Shown here piece after piece: positions 1 through 39,106 of a stretch of 39,876 nucleotides of DNA. A program made the position numbers and the translations under genes. The stretch is from Candidatus Methylacidithermus pantelleriae (GTDB lineage Bacteria > Verrucomicrobiota > Verrucomicrobiia > Methylacidiphilales > Methylacidiphilaceae), in NCBI RefSeq assembly GCF_905250085.1, contig NZ_CAJNOB010000013.1, forward strand, positions 1 to 39,876. Reading direction: 5' to 3'. Under the pieces are notes generated by a model. It worked only from the letters and a program-made list of their open reading frames with translations. It was not told the origin of the DNA and did not search any database. Each line of letters opens with the position of its first letter. The first letter of the stretch is position 1.

Positions 1-32
1 AACGACCTTTCCTCGGAGAGGAATAGCCGTTT

Positions 33-725
33 ATGCTCTTGGGAACGGTGTCGCTTAAGGAGCGTTTGGTTCAACCGGAAATCCTTGACGGGCTTTCCCC
101 GGAAAGCCGGGAGGCGCGACAAGCACGAGCGAGTCTGCGCCGGATCAATTTCCTCATGGGGAATTTTGGTTGGTTTCAAAGGAGACTTCGAGCCTATGTG
201 GAAAGCTTGCCCGTGGCGAGGCCAGTGCGGGCCCTAGAACTAGGCGCCGGGGATGGGACGCTCGCCAGAGTTCTTTCCCAAGATCCGGAGCTAGCCGGGC
301 GGTTGGTCGTCACCGGACTTGACCAGATTCCCCGTCCGAAAAATTGGCCTAAGGATTGGGGGTGGGTTTGCGGGAGGATCGAGGAATTCGCCCAATGGCA
401 AGATTATTCGATCGTTTTTGGGAACCTCATTGCCCACCACTTTGTTGCTGAGGATCTTGGGCGTCTGGGGAGTTTTCTTGGGCGTTTCGCCCATCTATTG
501 CTTTTTAGTGAACCGTTACGCGCTTTGCGCTCGGTGGTTTGGCTGCGGCTCATTAGCCCGGTCCTGCTTGACCCAGTGACCCGATATGATGCTATGGTCA
601 GTGTTCGAGCTGGGTTCCAGAAGGAGGAACTTCCTCATTTTTTGGGCTTACCTCAAGAGAAGTGGAAGGTGAAGGTCGAAACAACGCTTTGGGGGGCCTA
701 CCGCTTGGAAGCGGTGCGCGTCTAA
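33..725 (+). CDS. Class I SAM-dependent methyltransferase, substrate unknown
   Basis: A 230-residue protein with a Rossmann-type SAM-binding core. The glycine-rich motif I (LELGAGDGTLA) lies at about residues 68-78, and an acidic turn (GLDQIP) follows about 20 residues later, as expected for strand beta-2. A motif IV-like segment (IVFGNLIAHHF) follows near residue 130. The N-terminal 60 residues are helical and basic and resemble a small cap. There is no signal peptide or membrane segment, so it should act in the cytoplasm. A GAGAGGA-like ribosome site lies about 9 bases before the ATG. The methyl acceptor cannot be read from the sequence. It stands alone on the plus strand here and may be the last gene of an operon that begins before the window. 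The family is clear; the substrate is unknown. Confidence 0.82.
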   Translation: MLLGTVSLKERLVQPEILDGLSPESREARQARASLRRINFLMGNFGWFQRRLRAYVESLPVARPVRALELGAGDGTLARVLSQDPELAGRLVVTGLDQIPRPKNWPKDWGWVCGRIEEFAQWQDYSIVFGNLIAHHFVAEDLGRLGSFLGRFAHLLLFSEPLRALRSVVWLRLISPVLLDPVTRYDAMVSVRAGFQKEELPHFLGLPQEKWKVKVETTLWGAYRLEAVRV

Positions 726-7607: not shown

Positions 7608-9727
7608 GAGCTTCGTATCGTCGAGCCTATTTTTTGTGTCTTTCCCCTTCTTTCTTTTTTCGGAACGAGCGACACGAGCGCGTGTATTGGGCTATCCGGT
7701 GTAAAAGTGGAGCCGTTGTCCGTGCCGCCTTTCTGCCAAGTCTCTAGGTCCGATGGAGGATGGGTTACTCCGCCCGCTCAAAAAAGACGAAAGCCATAGC
7801 GCAAAACGAGCCGGGTTATCCCGGCAAAATCGCCTTGCTCAACACCCCGGGGCAGAAACTCACCATGTAAGATTACACATCCCTCCGGAAAAAGTAAGCA
7901 TCTTCGCTTGGGATGGACTTAGGACGACCCATGAGGAGCTGCTCTCGCTTGCCTTCTTTCCTTGGTGGCATTCGCTAGTTGTTGATCTGGTGACCGAGAA
8001 GGCTAAAAACCCGTGGGTTAAAAGCCTCTCGATTTTTCCTTTGCAGTTTCAGCTGGTTGGTGGGCCCAATGACAGGAGGATTTCTCATGCTGGATGTGGA
8101 GACCCCCGATACGTTTGCCGGTTGATTGGGAAGAGTGGGCGCTGCAGGGCAGTTGGGTGCATTTGGTGATCCGAGCGCTGGAGGGATGGATGGGGGAAGT
8201 TTCGGGTGACTGGGCGAGGAAGAGCGGAGAATGCTCGAGGCGCGACCTTTGAGGATGCTTTCGTTATTGATTTACTGCTATGATTTACTCCTATGCCCAT
8301 CGGGTGTTTTCGAATCGTAGGGACCCCAGGGTGTTGACGTGGCGGGATGTGGCGGTGCGGCTTCTGCGTGGGAATACCCATCGGGGTCATGATCCAATTA
8401 GCTGGTTTCGGAGAGAGAATGTCCGAAACGGTGGCCGAGTGTTTCGGGGGGCGGGTGTTGGAGTTAGCTCGGCAGATGGCATTTTTGAAGGTGGATGCGG
8501 TGAATCTGGATGGAGAGCCCTGCCCATCGGGGCCAGCATCGCAAGGTGACTTGTCGGAAGCCGGGCGAGCCAACGGTGTTTTTAGCTGAGGATGGAGCGG
8601 AACTCTTGGAAAGGCCAATAGTACAGCGATCGGAAGGGAGAGGAGGATCCTGGAAGGTTACTCAAAGGAGCTCGTTCTTCAGTACCGCTTGGTGGAGAGG
8701 TTAGAAGAAGCGCGGCACAAGTGAGAGAAATGAGCAAAAACGAGGGAGCAAAAGGAAGGAGAAGGAAGAACAAAGGGCCAGAACCATGGGCCACAGAAGC
8801 CAGATGGCTTGGCTCAGGGGAAGCCAAGAGCAGGGGAATCTATCCGTTTGATGCATTCTGACCGTCACCTCCTGCCTGGGGGCCAGAGCGGAAGGTCGGG
8901 AACAAAGTTACAACGGAGAGGCTGCGGTGGATGTGGAGGGGAGTGGTGTGGTGCTTTCGGCCGGAGTTAGGGTTTGTTGCGAGTCAAGCTAACGAACTGG
9001 GGAGCTAACGTGGAGGCGATCCCTGCGATAGTGGGCTTGCGTGAACGCGGCGCTCGTGGATAGTGGCTAGGCAGATGAAAAGCAAATCGAAGCCCTGCAA
9101 AGAGAAGGAGCGGAGGTCTCTTAAGGTCGGAGGCGTCTCATCAGGAACGACGGTACGAGTTTTGTCCAGCGGATAGCCGTCTCGGCCAACGCCCGAGGAT
9201 GTGCTAGGCTGGTGATATCGGCTTTGTTGTGTGCGGTTCGATGTTCCGCTTGGTTGTCTCACCGTAAAGAGAGTTGTTCGCACTCCGTCAACTGGCACCG
9301 GGGAGACCGCTTCCCGAAAACGGTTGTTCTTAAGCCGGGCCAGTTGTGAATAACCCGCTTGGAGGTTATTCAAGGCGGAGGAAGCCAACGCTCCTATTTT
9401 TTGGCTTTTAGGCCCCAGCCGAAGCTTGGTTGCCTCTATGCGCGAAAGAGGGAGATCCAGGGAACCCGATCTTTGGGATTATCCAACCCATCATGGGTTT
9501 CCAAGGGTTCCGACTTCGGGCACATGCCAACGGTAGGGGATGAATGGCCACTTGATTGTCTGGCCTATAACGCGAAACGTCTAGGGAAGCTTATCCGAAC
9601 CCAATTGCCCACCTTCTCTCCGATCGGAATCGCCAAAAATGGCCTTCGGCTACGGAAGCAGGAGTTGCAGGCTCCGAGTTACCCCCGCTTTAGGTCTTTC
9701 CAAGGTTGGATCCTGGACTGTTTTCTC
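7608..9727. other. Decayed stretch without an intact gene
   Basis: About 2.1 kb with only short overlapping frames on both strands. Protein-like pieces switch frame often. On the plus strand, one reads VDWEEWALQGSW near 8120 and another YSYAHRVF near 8285. On the minus strand, a 127-codon frame (9005-9388) begins MASSALNNLQAGYSQLA. None is long or conserved enough to name. Base composition stays GC-rich, which keeps random frames open. The pattern fits eroded foreign genes next to the TnpB-related remnant. No tRNA, rRNA or repeat array was seen. Confidence 0.45.
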
Positions 9728-9743
9728 ACGGTTCCTGAACCGT
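9728..9743. repeat. Short palindrome at the end of the TnpB-related remnant
   Basis: ACGGTTC (9728-9734) and GAACCGT (9737-9743) are perfect inverted arms with a 2-base spacer. The right arm (CTGAACCGTT) is also present at the matching end of the second copy near 33014, where the left arm is missing. Terminal hairpins are typical of IS200/IS605-type elements, so this may be the element's 3' end signal. Confidence 0.4.
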
Positions 9744-11280
9744 TCCTAAAACCATAGACAACCATTCGGATACCAAGGAAGATCGTCCAGGACAGCTGAC
9801 GAACAGGGCTGCTGACGCTTCCCATGCCGGGGGTTCACCAGCAAAGACCGGGTAACGGCCCAGTCACGTGTTTTGGCGGACAAACGCGGGAGAGAGCCAA
9901 TTCCCTTCCGACCGGACGTGCGCCGCATGCGCTGCTTTGAGTCTCTTCCGAATCCCCGCCATAGAAACGACCATCCACGCTTTGTCCAATTGTTTCCGGG
10001 TAGGGGGAAGCTGACATGACTTCGTTGCGGGTCGGAACTACCTCCTCGCGCGCGGACGGACGTTCGGAGAGATCCAATCCTCTCCGGGGAAAGGACGAGG
10101 CCACGCCCTCGTAAGAACTCGTGTCCCGACGACCTGCGTAGTTGACCACGCCGATCACTAGCGTGTAGGCCCGCGTCGACTTTGATCCTCTCGACTCCCG
10201 CAAGAAAAAAAGCCGACTTGACCACCACGATTGCCTTGCTCGTAGGCGAAGGAAAAGAGCCAAGGGAGCCCAAACGGAATCCACCGAGTTAAGCTCAAGC
10301 TTTGCTCTTTGGAAGATCGAAGCATTCCATCGCAAGCGTCTTGCCTGATTCGTCGCAGGCGCCAGGGATCTCTTTGCGGGCATCACCAAAAATCGCTCTC
10401 GCCTACTCCCCGCTCTTGCCATGGAGATTCCATTGGATCTTGCGGATTCTCACGCGATTGCCAAAGGGGTCCCTTTGCGCCACGGCGAGATGAGCCCCGT
10501 TCGTGTCGATGCCGACCCCTCCGGCAAGCGGGCGTGTCACCAACGAGAAGGGGTCTGCGCCTCGACACTTGGGAAACACCCGCAACCCCTTTTCGCTCCC
10601 GCACGAAGCGGCTAGCTCAAAGCCGCGATCGCTCCGCCTTCCGGACAAGTTTTCCCCGTCTTGGTTGTCTCAATGATGATCCGCCTGACAGCAAGCGCCT
10701 GGAAGATGGCCTCCTGGCCATAGGCGAAGCGAACCTTTTCAAGAACGAGGTATTGGCTCGGGCTTTCCCAGCTGTCTAGCAGGCGCAACCGCAAGCCGAA
10801 AGACTCGCTTCCGGGGATACCGTGACTTGGCAGGACGGGTTGCCCGCGGTCTTATCCTTCGACCCGAGCAGAGAGAAGTCGCTTGTCCGCTCCGCTTGAC
10901 CATTTCTCTTCCGGTCCGCATGGGTTGCGCGCATCGGTTTTCTTCCAAGGAAAACGTTTTCGGCGAAGAGCCGGCCCAAACCCAAAGAGAGACGCACCCG
11001 CCCGGGACTCCTCTTCGGCCAGAAGCGCATGGAGTTTCGGCCCGAGGATAGCCAGCCGCCGGTTTTTCTCGCGCAAAACGTGTGATCTTGGCATCTTTTC
11101 CTTGAGCGTGCGGATGAGCTCTTCCGGATCCCGCTCATTAGCTTCCCTCCATGAGCTCGGGCCGCCCTTCACGCCGCTCGGGGCCATCTTGGCTTTACGC
11201 TCGGACCTGCAGGGTATCAAACTCTTGGGCGGTCCAGCTAAACCACGGCAAAAAGTATCGCTTACGTTTTCTTTAGCGAA
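9733..11280 (-). pseudogene. TnpB-related (IS200/IS605 OrfB-like) gene, copy 1, multiply frameshifted
   Basis: Read on the minus strand, consecutive pieces in different frames spell one TnpB-related protein of about 500 codons. A lysine-rich N-terminal part covers about 11280-10850 (REANERDPEELIRTLKEKM; KLHALLAEEES). A middle part covers about 10795-10610 (YLVLEKVRFAYGQEA). The RuvC-I-like block VGIDTNGAHLAVAQRD has its aspartate codon near 10505-10507. The C-terminal part spans about 10270-9740, including YTLVIGVVNYA and RRGLDLSERPS. At least four frame changes break it, so no active protein can be made. TnpB proteins are RNA-guided nucleases that accompany IS200/IS605 transposons; no TnpA gene is visible nearby. 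A second, shorter copy lies at 33013-33932. The upstream boundary (about 11280) is approximate. Confidence 0.78.
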
Positions 11281-11299
11281 CTACCAGCCGGCATCTGAG

Positions 11300-12030
11300 A
11301 GAAAAAACTCCGCTCCCGCCCGCGTAAGAGCGCCACATTCGATGTTACGACCCAAAGCCTCTTCCGGTGTAGGCGTCAAAACTCTCTTTTATCTACAAAA
11401 AATGGGAAAGCTTCCTTCGGAATGGCTTCGAGCGCTTTCTTGGGAGGGTTGTCCGCGGATTTTCTGGTAAAGCTTCCCACAGGGCCAATCAATAACCTCA
11501 TGGAGCTCGCGCACGATATCGTCGCGTCGCTCATCTCAATGGGATCCACCACCAGGATGGATCGACTCTGCGTGGCCAATGCTTTTTCCCCGCACTCGAA
11601 ACCCAAGCGCATTAGCCGGCGGCGATGCTCTACCAGGACGACGCCAACCTTCGGGATCACGCAGCTGCCTACCGACCCCTCTGCGATGAGCGTTTCTCCC
11701 GGAAGTGACCTTCTTGACCACCTTGACGACCCGCAAGAGTTTGCTTGAGAACCAACTGGGGAGAACCCAAGCGAATGGTTTGTCTCAATCGGCTTTTTCA
11801 CCGGCGTTTGCATACCCGCGCATAGAAAGCCACCCCGTCGGGAGGCGGCACTTCTGCACGGACGATCAGCGTCCCGGTCGGCAACGATTCTGCGGTAACT
11901 AGGCAAAGGCCCTTCCTTCCACATCCGCCCACCCGTCTTGTAACCAATACCCTGCTGCTTCGCCCATGCGCTTGAGTTTATTTGCATATTCTTACAGGAG
12001 GGGCCTTGTGTGGCCATGTATTTTTGCTTT
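11300..12030 (-). pseudogene. Decayed gene of unknown family ('X'), copy 1
   Basis: This minus-strand segment shares readable protein blocks with the segment at 37800-38540. Paired blocks are LPTGTLIVRAE versus LPIGTVIVHAG, VGVVLVEHRRRLMRLG versus IGMIWVEDPERLVRLG, and ATQSRSILVVDPIEM versus AVQSRSILVIEPNEM. Each copy needs frame shifts to read through, but the shifts fall at different places, which indicates a once-functional gene of at least about 240 codons. A 294-codon frame (11376-12260) covers part of it by chance continuation. I do not recognise the family. It sits directly upstream of the TnpB-related copy 1 on the same strand, so both may belong to one element. Confidence 0.5.
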
Positions 12031-12265
12031 TGGTAACCTTTCTTTTCTGTTCCGCGAGCATCGCCGACATTTTTGGCCTTAAGCACAAGAGGCTGGTAAG
12101 TCCTACCTTTAGGAGATTCACCTTGGGGAGAAATAAACCTGAGGGCAGATCTATAGGATTTTATTGGCTCCCTTCGAACCGGTCTTTTCTTTGTGGAGCA
12201 AATCTCCTTCAGCGCGGCATTTTGTCGCGGTATCTTTTTATTGAAAGAAGAGGATTCCACTGCTA

Positions 12266-33012: not shown

Positions 33013-33932
33013 TCCTGAACCGTTCTGAAAACCATAGACAACCGTTTGCCTACCAGGGAAGATCGTCCGGGACGCCGGCCGCCGAACCGTGCTGCCGGCG
33101 ATTGGCGTATCGGGGTTTCACCGACAAAGCCCAGGTAGCGCCCAGTCCGGCGTTTTTGGGGACACAGGCGCGCGAGACAGCCCGATTGCATCCCGACCGG
33201 GCATGTAGTACACTTGCGCCGCGTTGAGTCTCCCCCGAACCCCTGGCCGGAACCACCACACCTGCTTGGTCCGATTGCTTCCGGGTAGGGCAAAGGTGAC
33301 ACTACCGCCGTTGCGAGAAGGCACGACTGCCCCCTCCCACGAATGGGCTTTCGGACAGACCCAATCCTCTCCGGGCGAGGGCACGAGGCCACGTTCTAGC
33401 TAGAACTTGTGCCATGACGACGTGCGTCATTGACCGCGCCCATCACAGGCGTGTGGGCCGCGTCGACTTCGGTTCGCCTCGACTCCGGCAGCAAAAAAAG
33501 CCGACTTCACCGCCGCGATCGCCTTGGCGTAGGCGAAGGAAAAGAGCAAGCCAGCCGCAACAGGATCCACCGACTCCAGCTCGAGCGTCCTCTTACAAAG
33601 ATCCAATCCTTCGATCACAAGCGCCTTGCCCGATTCAGCACAGGCGCGGATCACCTCCTTTGCACGCATCACCAAAAATCGCTTTGGCTTGCTCGTCGCT
33701 CTTGCCATGGAGATTGAATCGGATCCCGGGGATTCTCACGCCTTTATCAAAGCAGTCCGTTTCGGCCAAGGTGAGATGACCCTCGTTCGTGTCGATGCCG
33801 ACCGCTCCGGCAAAGCGGTGTGTCACCCAGGAAATGGGTCTGCGCCTCGACCCTTGGCAAACACCCGTTCCCCTTCCAGTCCCGCACGAATCGGTAGCTT
33901 TGCGGCGGATCCCTTTCGCTTGCGGAGGAGTT
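33013..33932 (-). pseudogene. TnpB-related gene, copy 2, 5'-truncated and frameshifted
   Basis: Homologous to the remnant at 9733-11280. Minus-strand pieces in changing frames read YRFVRDWKG, then VGIDTNEGHLTLAETD (RuvC-I-like aspartate near 33791-33793), LHGKSDEQAKAIFGDA, ALVIEGLDL (RuvC-II-like glutamate near 33610-33612), FSFAYAKAIAAVKSAFF, and a C-terminal part ending near 33013. Its last bases, CTGAACCGTT and beyond, match the end of copy 1. The N-terminal third is missing: at about 33930 the sequence switches to an IS1634-type transposase tail. Not functional. Confidence 0.75.
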
Positions 33933-35260
33933 TCCCGGCCAGTGATACACGGGACGGGCTTCCAGGGTGCTTCTGAGCTGGGAAAAAACCGGTTCAAATC
34001 TTGGCGACTCGCTTATGTTGAGTGACGAGCACTCCGGGGGAAGCTTCCGGTAGGGAGAGATGGGGCTCCCCGAGATACTATCCACCGATCGGTTCCTCTT
34101 CTGGGATCCGCTCCTCTCTTTACGCTTCCACCGGAGACCTTGTCGGTTGACTTCGTACTCGAAAGGATTTTTTGGGCTTGGAGGCAAAAGGGCTCCCCGA
34201 CCGACCGGGCTCCCCAGTTTGAGCGGATCGGCTTTTGGGCGATCGTTTTCGGAATCTCGGCCAACACCTCCTTCGCACGAGCTACCCGGCTTTGCCGCCG
34301 GGCCCGATCGCTCAAGGCTTAGGCCATTTTCCTGGGGCAATCATAGAATCGAACCCCATTGCTTTCCCCCTCGATGCCTTGACTCCGGTGGGTAAGGCAA
34401 AGCTGCGGATCTTTTGCGAAGAGTCCGAACATCGCTCTTGGAGCTTCGCCTCTCTTGCCTCAAGCGACATAGGGAAGCGCTCTCTCCGTCAAGCCCCTTC
34501 AAGTTCCACGGGCTTTTCCGTTCCTCCATCAAAAACGAGGGTTCTTTCTGGGATGCCCAACCGGCCTTGGAGTGTCACGAGCAACGCCACAAGAGTTTTC
34601 GAATCCGCCCGGTTTGCCCGCAAATTCTTTACAAGAAATCGGAACTTCTTGAGCATGGGTCGCAATCGAGAAGAAAAACTGGCCGCCGATCCCGTCGGTG
34701 ATCTCGGCTCTGTCCATAACGGGATAGTCCCTCCGGCCCTGCCCCTCAAAGTACACACGGCGGATAGATCATAAAGCACAAGACTCGTTCCCCGAAGGCG
34801 ACCCTCGCGATAGAGCTTCTTTTCCACCTAGTTCTAACCGCCGTTTCACCCATCCCTCGCGGAGGCAGAGCTCGTTCTCCTTCCAACTCCCTTTGTCCTC
34901 TATCCTCTGCCCCACAGCGTTCCCCCGAAGGTGTCCCCCTTGCTTCCTTCCGCAACGCACACTTCGAAGAGGCAAAAAGAGTCTGCCCCCAAAAGCGATC
35001 GCTTTACTCGACCGCCGCTTTCGCTCCGATCTTTTTCCTCCAAGGATTTCCTCTACACCGCAGCTTCGCGACACCTCTTCCCGTACCCCGCACCCCGCAT
35101 CATCGAATGGCTCTTCCAGCTGTAAGGCCTCTAGGGGGACAAGCTTTTGCGCTTTCAAGCTTGTGCGAACAACCTCCTGCCTTTCGACCGGGAGCCGCCT
35201 CCCATGGCCCAGTTGCTTCCGTTCACCTTTTTCACCTTTTCCCCAACCGGCAGGACTCCC
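33933..35260 (-). pseudogene. IS1634-type (IS4 superfamily) DDE transposase remnant
   Basis: Minus-strand pieces in several frames spell a DDE transposase. In order these are VPLEALQLEEPFDDAGC near 35130; EKKLYREGRLRGTSLVLYDLSAV near 34820-34760 (in part; first catalytic Asp in YDLS); YFEGQGRRDYP; a FAGKP/NRADSKTL block near 34610; ERTLVFDGG near 34530 (second Asp); and, near 33990-33940, RFEPVF-x-QLRSTLEARPVYHW, the family C-terminal signature with the catalytic Glu. There are many frameshifts and some deletion: about 1.3 kb against roughly 1.6 kb for an intact gene. Its end abuts the truncated TnpB-related copy 2, so insertion here probably removed that gene's 5' part. Terminal inverted repeats could not be defined by eye. 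Confidence 0.7.
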
Positions 35261-37790
35261 GAACCCTCGCCTGCCGCTACATGCTCCCGGTGCGATCGGT
35301 ACGGACCTCGTGGACAAAGATGCCTACAACCTGCAAGATCTATCATTTTCCTATGGAAGAATCAGCTATGCGCAATCTCTTGAGGAACCGACTCTATGCA
35401 CTTTTCCATAAGTGGTCTTATAACTGCAAAGGTCCGAAAACCTGAGAAACTGAAGCGAGTTGCCGGCTTGCCGTTCCCCGAAGTTCGTTATTCTTGGTAC
35501 CGAGTCGCCGGAGCATCCATCTCTACCCTTCCTTCTCGTAAAGCCAAAGATCCTCATGGGGTTGTCTTCTTGCCTTTGCTTTTTGCAAGTCAAAGCGGAG
35601 CCGATAACCATCTTGGGCGCCACGATCGGAAGCCATGGGAAAAGATAGACCCGCACGTGCCGGGAAGGCCACCCGTTATTCGTGCCTACAGCGGGTGGGA
35701 AAGCGGCGGCCTACCGGACCCAAGAAAACGCCGCCGCCGGTACATGGGGCCTTCGACAAAGAGACAGAATCTTTGGGAGAAGCCAACTCATTCGGTTTTT
35801 TCTTTCCCCTCTTCTTTCTTCCGTCATTCTTGTTCATCGCTTCCCCCAAGGAATGCGATTGCAATAGTTATAGTCTCTAGCAGAATCACGCGGGGGTTGT
35901 CAAAGTTTCTCCGTTGTTGCCACCTAATGCTCGTGGCAGGAGTAGATTGCCAGGCATGCGCGGGCTCACGCTGAGCCCCCGCAGGGGGGGTCAGTGGCGC
36001 TTGACCCTCCTAACTCCAGAAGTATTTGCTTGGGGATGCGCGGCCAAAAGCATTATGAATTGGGTTTTCTTCATCGAAAGATTAGCGCGATTCAGGTCGA
36101 AAGTAGCGATCCCCGGCACGCTTTGGCTTTGCCGGCTTTAAGGCCACATGAGCAGCGTCATGGCGGTCTACTTGGGTAGTGGCCCGATTGAGCGGACTAC
36201 TGCAATCGTACGCGGTCGCCACAAGATACTGGTTTCGAGGCGAGGCAGGATTTTCAATCAATCACTCAAGAAGCTCCCCGACAAGCCGCTCAAAACCCGT
36301 TCGTGAGCGAGCTTTCTCTTTTCCTCTTTCCAGCCCTGCTTGAGGCTGGCTTGTGAGCACATCTTCTCTCGGGTCACCAGCGGGGCCCTTGATTCCGGGG
36401 AACTCGTAGGAAGTGGGCTCAAGCCGGAGTTTCAGTGGCGCTTGAAACTCACCACCCTGCCTTTGCACACCGTCTGGACCGAGCAAGGAGAAAACAGGCT
36501 GTCCTGGTCGGTGAAAGGCGCGGTTTGAGCCGATGCACCACACAAAAAGGGGATAACGGAAAAACACCCAAGCGATTGCTCGGCGGGAAACGCGAAAAAG
36601 CAGGCTTACAAAAGCTATACCCGATCACTGCTTACGAGATAGGAAAAGATTGAGACTGCCAGCTGCGTACGAGTGGTGTACAAAGTTCGGCGATCCCCAG
36701 ACCAGACTCTGCAAGAAGAAGACGCTTCCATCGCCTCTCCGGGCATGGCGAAGCTGATGGATATCAACCGCCACTCTTCGTACGTCAACTTCTAGCGCTA
36801 CGAGGTATTCTAAAAGATCGACGAGCCGCACGCTCACCCCGAACCTTGCCAGAGGAGCCTGCGGCCGCCGAATGCCCGCCGGCTGCTGGATAACCGGGTC
36901 AAGGCTATAGCAATAACCTGGAAACCTAACGCGATGCACCATAGCTACGGGCGCCGTCACCTTGCCCAAACCAATAATGCGCCGATGGTGCTTATTGAGC
37001 GCGTCCATGAATCACCGGAGCTTCTCTAAAAAAAAGACTACCACCTGCTGGCCAAGCAAGAAGGACGCCCAGCGCGATTGGAACATTCGACCGTCTCTCC
37101 CTTGTCCAACGTCATCCCGTTTGCCACCGGGAACCTTTGGATCACCTATCACGGCTCCGGAGGAGTCGAACGGGCTTGTTCCCGATACGGCCCGACGTTG
37201 TGCCACCGACCCCGGGGGCCTAATGCGCACTGTTTGGCTTCTAAAATCCGTCCCGAGGTAGATCCATCGATTCCTAGGTAGGAAAAGGCGCGTTTTTTAA
37301 GCGATGTGCCCCGTGACCGAGCCATCCAAGCCCCCATAGAGCCTAACTCGTTGATGGCCAATCCTACCCCCCACGCGCTGCCCCCAATTTCCGGATACAA
37401 GTACACACAATCACGGCCAATCCGTTCCCAAGGGGATCCACCTGCGCCCTGGTGCTCTAGGACGCGCTTGTTCCGATGTGTCCCATGGTTCCACCACCAT
37501 GAACGTTGGAGCATCTCCACAAACACAGCGCCAGGCACACAACCCAAAGAACCCAGAACGGGATTTCCTCATCGTTTTGGCACTCCCTGACCCTTTTTGA
37601 TCTTCTCGCCCACCGGTGCTGGCCTAGCTTTGGATCCTGGGCAGTCTAACCCAACCCGCAGCTACGTTCACCGCCCAAGGGTAAGGACGCTGGGCAACCG
37701 GTTTCATTGCTGGAACCGGATCGCGTTCAAGTGCCGGTGAGGCAGAGGCGGCGCACGAGTGAGTGCTAGAGCTTGTTTGGCAAAATGCCG
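35261..37790. other. Long decayed stretch, content not identified
   Basis: About 2.5 kb with no intact gene on either strand. Short protein-like pieces appear, for example QWRLTLLTPEVF near 36000 and QWRLKLTTLPLH near 36430 on the plus strand, and RRIIGLGKVTAPVAMV near 36980 on the minus strand. They do not join into a recognisable protein. No direct-repeat array, tRNA or rRNA is seen. The stretch sits between the IS1634-type remnant and the second X copy and is probably eroded accessory DNA. Confidence 0.4.
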
Positions 37791-37799
37791 CGACCTGCA

Positions 37800-38540
37800 T
37801 CCGGGCAAAAAGGGCCGGCATTTGCCCGCCCGTAAAGCGCTGCATAGGCGTCCAGGCACCAAACCTGCCCGGGGTTAGCCGCAAAAACGGGTCTGCGAGG
37901 TAAAAACAAGGGGCTTACTCATGCCATTGGTTCGAGGGCCTTCTTCGGCCGGTTTGTAGCGGACCGCTTCCCGTAAACCCTGGCGCACAGGGAAACGATG
38001 AGCGTGCGCAGAGATCACCCACAATGTCCTCCGCTCCATCTCGTTGGGCTCAATGACGAGGATGGAGCGGCTCTGCACGGCTAATACCGCCCCCAGGAAT
38101 GGAAATCCCCAAGCGTACGAGCCGCTCGGGATCCTCGACCCAAATCATGCCTATCCTTGGATCAGGCAGCACGCTGATGAGACCTCTCCGGTGGCCGTTC
38201 ATTCCAGTCCGGCCTCAATGACACAACCTTTGGCGATCCGCAGCCGTTTGCTTTAGCATAAACTCGCGTCAAGCACGCCGGTTGCGTATCGGGATGGAGT
38301 TTTTGGGCGTCGCTGAACAGACGCGCGTAGAGAACGACGCCATCGGCTCGCTCCGGCCCCGCATGCACGATGACAGTTCCAATGGGCAGCCGGTCGGCCG
38401 GAAACGGGAACCGCCGCTCATTCCCCATCCGCTAAGCTGGTTTCTAACGGCTACCCTGCCGCTTGGTTCAGACAGTCAACTTCACGGGAATATCTTTTCA
38501 TGAAATACCCTTGTGGCCCATATATAATGCAGGTATTGGC
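37800..38540 (-). pseudogene. Decayed gene of unknown family ('X'), copy 2
   Basis: Paralogue of the 11300-12030 segment, on the same strand. Readable blocks in order are GPQGYFMKRYSREV near 38520, LPIGTVIVHAG near 38385-38350, DGVVLYARLF, PDPRIGMIWVEDPERLVRLG near 38150 and LAVQSRSILVIEPNEM near 38080-38035. A further block, RFGAWTPMQRFTGGQMPAL, lies near 37850. Stops and frameshifts separate them. Nucleotide similarity to copy 1 is visible directly at 38029-38086 versus 11529-11581. The family is not recognised. Confidence 0.5.
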
Positions 38541-39106
38541 ACCCCCGAGCACTGGCCTCCTCACGAGCTCGATGAAACGCTCTGTTGAGGTCGGGGAGAG
38601 AGGGAAAATCGGGTCCAAGACCAACGCTCCCTCTTTGCCAAGATCCTTTTGATGTCACAAATGGCTAGCAACGAGCTTCACCTATCCTTCTCGGGTTCTA
38701 ACTTATGCCCTCTTATACCCTACCCGAAGCACTGTGACACACGTCGCTCTGCAAGGAACGGAATGAGCCCGAGGCGGAGATGGGAACGCTTCGCTTTGAT
38801 CCCTTTGATATCGAGAGCTTTCTGCGTCGGCGTCCGACCTCTCCTCCTCCCGTTGGCGGGTGCCTATCCTTGGAAAAGCCTCTTTCTCCACGCCTACCAA
38901 GCGCAGCGCTGATAAAGCCTCTCTCAAAACCGCAGCTTCCCTTCCTTTAGCAAAGCCTACCTTCGGGCGAAACTTTGCTTTACATCGGTCTTTCGAAGGC
39001 TCGTCTTCCGAGGTGGAGAAAAGGCGTCTAGGATTTAAGCAGAGGCTGGCGCCGTTTGACATCTCTCCGCCGTGCACCTAGGATGAGGCGGTGCTTCATT
39101 TCTTGC
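38541..39106. other. Stretch between X copy 2 and the tRNA, no convincing gene
   Basis: About 560 bases. A minus-strand frame (38703-39077) includes KFRPKVGFAKGREAAVLREAL, which is helix-like, but it has no start signal or known domain. This may be more eroded element DNA. The promoter of the tRNA should lie just before 39107. Confidence 0.35.

What the first reader, a model, noticed from the sequence alone, without database searches (positions are those of the whole stretch)
9733..12030. Two decayed regions share the same gene pair in the same order
On the minus strand, unknown gene X lies upstream of the TnpB-related gene at 12030-9733. The same two families recur at 38540-33013, again X upstream of TnpB on the same strand, with other debris and an IS1634-type remnant between them. 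Both loci are frameshifted independently. This suggests an old composite element, or a duplicated region, in which a TnpB-like nuclease travelled with an uncharacterised partner. The shared blocks and order are seen directly; the element idea is inference.
Basis: partly seen in the sequence, partly recalled or inferred. Interest (0 to 1): 0.62.

Follow-up and report, generated by a model that had tools for sequence, protein, structure and literature searches.

The report
Dead IS607 transposons, among many
The "unknown gene X plus TnpB" pair is an ordinary bacterial jumping gene of the IS607 family (X is its transposase), and the two spots in this window are remnants of the dozens of dead copies scattered through this methane-eating bacterium's genome.

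Summary
X is not uncharacterised. It is TnpA, the serine-recombinase transposase of the IS607 family (NF033518, 141 bits against a cut-off of 110). X plus TnpB is the normal gene pair of that family. Window 12037-9741(-) is one full-length but dead copy of a ~2.28 kb element. The host genome holds 55 loci with tnpA remnants and 75 matches to the element's right end; no intact copy was found. In 28 full-length copies, divergence from the consensus is nearly equal at the three codon positions (0.164/0.153/0.194), against 0.228/0.174/0.451 for an intact relative: a burst, then unselected decay. The second locus is not one pair. Its X piece (38541-37712, 67% to consensus) and its TnpB piece (33936-33021, 86%) most likely come from different copies, with an IS1634-like remnant abutting the second. 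Intact pairs exist in a sister genus. Not foreseen: the right end carries a ~200-nt RNA with strong covariation in relatives (25 of 46 pairs with double changes) and no Rfam match, probably TnpB's guide-RNA scaffold. Intact TnpB relatives lack the zinc ribbon and a conserved third RuvC aspartate.

The parts
9741..12037 (-). full-length, dead IS607-family copy (consensus 1-2282, 80% identity)
   Evidence: BLASTN of the 28-copy consensus; sharp borders; right junction AACG|G
   Evidence: tblastn to an intact sister-genus TnpA, E 1.6e-21; consensus NF033518 141 bits
9903..11124 (-). tnpB remnant (matched part), frameshifted
   Evidence: tblastn to an intact sister-genus TnpB, E 5e-23 and 2e-15 for the two main stretches
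9740..9935 (-). right-end RNA element (probable TnpB guide-RNA scaffold), decayed
   Evidence: model R1, 110.2 bits; structure supported by covariation in relatives
33021..33936 (-). 3' fragment of a second IS607 copy (consensus 1375-2282, 86%): C-terminal part of tnpB plus right end
   Evidence: RNA model 118.3 bits at 33020-33222
33935..35445 (-). IS1634-like transposon remnant (consensus 1-1494 of 1815, 84%), one of at least 21 decayed copies in the genome; abuts the 33936-33021 fragment
37712..38541 (-). 5' fragment of a probably third IS607 copy (consensus 3-826, 67%): tnpA plus the start of tnpB
   Evidence: too diverged from the 33 kb fragment to be the same copy
1..48 (+). probable right-end remnant of a further IS607 copy at the contig edge
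   Evidence: model R1 positions 151-199, 17.9 bits, cut off at the edge

Best explanation
Both loci are remnants of an IS607-family insertion sequence. An intact copy encodes TnpA (X), a serine recombinase with an N-terminal DNA-binding part that excises the element and inserts it at GG dinucleotides without terminal inverted repeats or target duplications. It also encodes TnpB, a RuvC/Cas12-like protein whose guide RNA is probably made from the structured right end. In this lineage the element multiplied to at least 55 tnpA-bearing loci; every copy examined has lost function and has decayed by nearly unconstrained mutation. At the second locus the X and TnpB pieces most likely come from different copies. 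Shown here: family identity, the paired organisation in intact relatives, ends and GG junctions, copy number, near-neutral decay, the covarying RNA in relatives. Inferred: the transposition chemistry (from the family) and the guide-RNA role of the right end.
For: Consensus X matches NF033518 at 141 bits (cut-off 110) and PF00239 at 37 bits (cut-off 23.3); an intact relative of X matches the solved IS607-family transposase 6dgb at E 1.8e-45. TnpB relatives match TIGR01766 (36 bits, cut-off 32) and weakly NF040570; best fold matches Cas12m/Cas12f on a weak model. Sharp ends and unalignable flanks in 28 copies; GG at left and right junctions in most copies, GG being the IS607 overlap dinucleotide (PMC4058570). 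Single-frame tnpA+tnpB pairs in L197, L198, L199, L201. Codon-position divergence 0.164/0.153/0.194 against 0.228/0.174/0.451. 62 tnpA matches = 55 loci; 75 right ends.
Against: The TnpB assignment rests on a short HMM match and a low-confidence model; PDB sequence searches found nothing. Third codon positions are slightly more diverged than the others (0.194), so part of the variation predates the burst. The assembly has 71 contigs, so an intact copy could be missing from it.
Confidence: 0.93

Rival explanations
1. The second locus is one IS607 copy split by insertion of the IS1634-like element and other debris, so X and TnpB there are still one pair.
For: Same strand and order. A clean nested insertion of this kind exists on contig C21: IS607 pieces 1-1317 and 1318-2280 with an IS1634-like copy between them.
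Against: 67% against 86% identity to the consensus, a difference of 0.19 where the largest in 28 copies is 0.094. About 550 bp of the element are missing, the IS1634-like copy lacks its own 3' end at the junction, and over 2 kb of other debris lies in between.
Confidence: 0.12
2. The two loci are copies of one duplicated chromosomal region, or ends of a composite element.
For: Shared order and strand of the two families.
Against: Homology stops at the element's borders in all copies; the family is dispersed over dozens of sites; the second locus is a mosaic.
Confidence: 0.02
3. Besides one early burst, copies that were already broken kept spreading, moved in trans by TnpA from other copies or overwritten by gene conversion.
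For: The window copy and the copy at C56:100304 share 210 derived substitutions and 17 indel columns (control pair 44 and 3), so their common ancestor was already frameshifted, yet the alignment between them stays inside the element. In relative G002 most copies examined have a frameshifted tnpA while several keep an open tnpB.
Against: Other copies look like a star with pairwise identity of mostly 67-76%, and the control pair shares few indels.
Confidence: 0.4
4. X and TnpB form a host-serving or defence pair that was duplicated.
For: None beyond co-occurrence.
Against: All host copies are dead and dispersed; X is a transposase; intact copies in relatives have transposon ends.
Confidence: 0.01

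Closest known systems
IS607 family (TnpA serine transposase plus TnpB), e.g. IS607, IS1535, ISC1904
   Same: TnpA family, gene order, overlapping or adjacent genes, GG junctions, no terminal inverted repeats or target duplications reported for the family (PMC4058570, PMC6188088)
   Different: Host copies are all broken; TnpB is ~500 aa, without zinc ribbon or a conserved third RuvC Asp
IS607 TnpB with RAGATH-18-derived reRNA (PMC11061315)
   Same: Structured RNA at the 3' end of tnpB in an IS607 element
   Different: No RAGATH-18 or any Rfam match; TnpB ~500 aa rather than an average of 390
IS-rich, degrading genome of Amoebophilus asiaticus (PMC3196728)
   Same: Many diverged, truncated, inactive IS copies retained in a small genome
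   Different: Amoebophilus is an intracellular symbiont and still encodes intact copies; this host is most likely Ca. Methylacidithermus pantelleriae, a geothermal methanotroph (inference from size, GC and isolated genus)

Membership tests
IS607 family | TnpA: serine recombinase of the IS607 type | tested here: met
   NF033518 141 bits over cut-off 110 on the consensus; intact relative to 6dgb E 1.8e-45
IS607 family | tnpA directly followed by tnpB on the same strand | tested here: met
   consensus, 39 of 80 relatives by one TnpB query, four intact pairs
IS607 family | junctions at a GG dinucleotide, no terminal inverted repeats or target duplication | tested here: met
   Left flank ends GG in 22 of 27 readable copies; right junction mostly G|G (counted by eye); no repeat beyond GG seen at the ends, though no separate inverted-repeat search was run
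IS607 family | catalytic transposition activity of TnpA | not testable with these tools
   no intact copy in the host; needs an assay with a relative
TnpB RNA-guided nucleases | TnpB family match | tested here: met
   TIGR01766 36.4 bits, cut-off 32; NF040570 37 bits, under its cut-off of 100
TnpB RNA-guided nucleases | RuvC D-E-D triad | tested here: not met
   D297 and E357 invariant, no invariant Asp after them in 7 relatives; the usual site reads HQGAA. So it is filed as TnpB-related, not as a proven nuclease
TnpB RNA-guided nucleases | C-terminal zinc ribbon (CxxC pairs) | tested here: not met
   no CxxC pairs in the C-terminal part of 7 relatives; no PF07282 match
TnpB RNA-guided nucleases | structured guide-RNA scaffold at the right end | tested here: met
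   46 pairs, 25 with double changes, 0 of 500 shuffles as high; that TnpB binds it was not tested
RAGATH-18 reRNA | Rfam RAGATH-18 match at the right end | tested here: not met
   cmscan of window and 8 loci, tRNA only

The most novel reading that the evidence does not exclude
This IS607 lineage (Methylacidiphilaceae and some proteobacteria) carries a TnpB subgroup without zinc ribbon and without a canonical third RuvC Asp, paired with an undescribed ~200-nt covarying guide RNA. It may cut DNA with a rearranged active site or act as an RNA-guided binder. In this host the lineage went from a large burst to extinction.
Probability: 0.3. Interest if true: 0.5.

Novelty: new member of a known kind. 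Interest (0 to 1): 0.28.

Why it matters
It removes a supposed new TnpB partner: X is the transposase. It also gives a countable case of a transposon burst followed by extinction, with many fossils kept, in a bacterium that is not known as a host-bound symbiont. The right-end RNA model and the odd TnpB active site are concrete, testable leads in intact relatives.

Tried and rejected
(1) Reading shared stops and frameshifts in the 28-copy consensus as proof of a dead master copy: columns are mixed at those sites and one is a homopolymer. A +1 change (CTCAAGCAAAC) is shared by most host copies and the frameshifted G002 copies; it stays unexplained. (2) A special mutation signature: G<>C changes are frequent (about 26%) and insertions exceed deletions in the host copies, but G<>C changes are also 19-21% among copies in relatives, so it is not specific. 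(3) PDB sequence search for TnpB: nothing useful. (4) AlphaFold of TnpB: weak, pLDDT 58, used only as support. (5) PF07282 as a TnpB probe: its 8 matches in the host do not include this family's window copy. (6) The one open IS607-like frame in the host (C1:100206) lacks the N-terminal part. (7) RAGATH-18 or other Rfam RNA at the right end: none. (9) A single frame of the window copy gives no Pfam hit, which is why X looked unknown.

Full report
WHAT WAS CLAIMED. Unknown gene X lies upstream of a TnpB-related gene at 12030-9733(-), and the same pair recurs at 38540-33013(-).

THE OBSERVATION. The blocks are real. The TnpB blocks align at 75% over 893 bp (565 bits, shuffled maximum 29). The X blocks align weakly with each other (38.3 bits, shuffled maximum 31), but both match an intact TnpA (E 1.6e-21 and 1.9e-29). 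Both loci are full of frameshifts.

WHAT IT IS. Searching the host genome with 9700-12100 gave 52 matches, most near 70% identity and many spanning the same ~2.2 kb. An alignment of 28 full or nearly full copies has sharp edges and unalignable flanks. The consensus is 2282 bp and the window copy is 12037-9741. The consensus X is IS607 TnpA (NF033518 141 bits, cut-off 110; PF00239), and an intact relative matches the solved IS607-family transposase 6dgb at E 1.8e-45. The second gene matches a TnpB-related model in intact relatives (TIGR01766 36 bits, cut-off 32). Junctions read ..GG|GTTGCC ... GGAACG|G.. in most copies. PMC4058570 gives GG as the IS607 overlap dinucleotide, and PMC6188088 states that the family lacks terminal inverted repeats and target duplications and that only tnpA is needed for transposition. 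So X + TnpB is the standard IS607 gene pair.

INTACT PAIRS. Among 80 public loci with an X relative, 39 have a TnpB of this type directly downstream on the same strand; this count depends on one TnpB query, and other TnpB types would be missed. In two sister-genus genomes four copies have both genes as single open frames (L197, L198, L199, L201). IS607 transposases were already reported in a Methylacidiphilum (PMC8779874).

HOST AND COPY NUMBER. Genome G000 (2,459,655 bases, alone in its genus) fits Ca. Methylacidithermus pantelleriae (2.46 Mb, 55.2% GC, only member of its genus; PMC9543262); this is inference. The IS607 TnpA model gives 62 matches, which merge by hand into 55 loci; none is an intact full-length gene. 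The right-end RNA model gives 75 matches. A second family, IS1634-like, has at least 21 decayed copies.

DECAY. Copies are on average 82.8% identical to the consensus and 67-80% to each other. Divergence by codon position is 0.164/0.153/0.194, against 0.228/0.174/0.451 between the consensus and an intact sister-genus copy. Each copy has 12-43 frame-disrupting indels relative to the consensus. This is what a burst followed by nearly unselected decay leaves. Some later movement or gene conversion of broken copies probably also happened: the window copy and the one at C56:100304 share 210 derived substitutions and 17 indel columns, against 44 and 3 in a control pair.

THE SECOND LOCUS. The X piece is consensus 3-826 at 67%; the TnpB piece is consensus 1375-2282 at 86%. 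The 28 full copies show 5'/3' identity differences of mean 0.009, sd 0.030, maximum 0.094, so 0.19 is far outside. The two alignments were scored slightly differently, but the gap is large. An IS1634-like remnant (35445-33935) abuts the TnpB piece, with its own 3' end missing. The simplest reading is remnants of two IS607 copies brought together by later events. A clean nested insertion of the IS1634-like element into an IS607 copy does exist on contig C21, so a single split copy is not fully excluded.

AN UNEXPECTED PART. The last ~200 nt of the element, overlapping the 3' end of tnpB, form a conserved RNA fold in 14 relatives: 46 pairs, 25 with changes on both sides, 94.5% of cells paired, no shuffle of 500 as high, and all slid controls far lower. 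Several of the 14 are closely related copies, so the cell counts overstate independent events, and the structure was derived from the same alignment; but the proteobacterial members differ widely. No Rfam family matches. The model finds it in the window at 9740-9935 and 33020-33222. In the host's dead copies pairing (78.2%) is barely above shuffled (76.0%), as expected once the constraint is gone. By analogy with IS607 TnpB and its reRNA (PMC11061315) it is probably the TnpB guide-RNA scaffold; binding was not tested. The intact TnpB relatives keep D297 and E357 but have no invariant third Asp and no zinc ribbon. The AlphaFold model is weak (pLDDT 58); its best fold matches are nevertheless Cas12m and Cas12f.

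VERDICT. Ordinary in kind: dead IS607 elements, with X the transposase. Mildly interesting for the size of the fossil family and for the RNA and active-site leads in intact relatives.

Noticed in passing
window 9740-9935(-), 33020-33222(-); relatives L090, L091, L097, L165, L197, L214: A ~200-nt covarying RNA at the right end of the IS607 element, absent from Rfam; probable TnpB guide-RNA scaffold.
   Followed up: yes
window 33935-35445(-): Remnant of a second dead transposon family (IS1634-like), at least 21 decayed copies in the host, 84% to their consensus.
   Followed up: partly
window 1-48(+): The window starts inside a probable right end of a further IS607 copy (17.9 bits, cut off).
   Followed up: no
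G002 loci L208-L216: In this sister-genus genome the copies with a single-frame tnpA (L208, L209) have a broken tnpB, while L211, L214, L215 and L216 have a single-frame tnpB and a frameshifted tnpA; none of the nine has both intact.
   Followed up: partly
host copies and L211-L216: The same +1 change (CTGAGC to CTCAAGC) in tnpA is in the consensus of the host copies and in the frameshifted G002 copies, but not in G002 L208-L210. Shared descent, transfer or a hotspot; not resolved.
   Followed up: partly
L087, L098: Elements with an intact-looking tnpA and right-end RNA but most of tnpB deleted.
   Followed up: no
host IS607 and IS1634-like copies: Frequent G<>C changes (about 26%) and more insertions than deletions against the consensus in both families; G<>C is also common among copies in relatives, and the indel excess may be an alignment effect.
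   Followed up: partly
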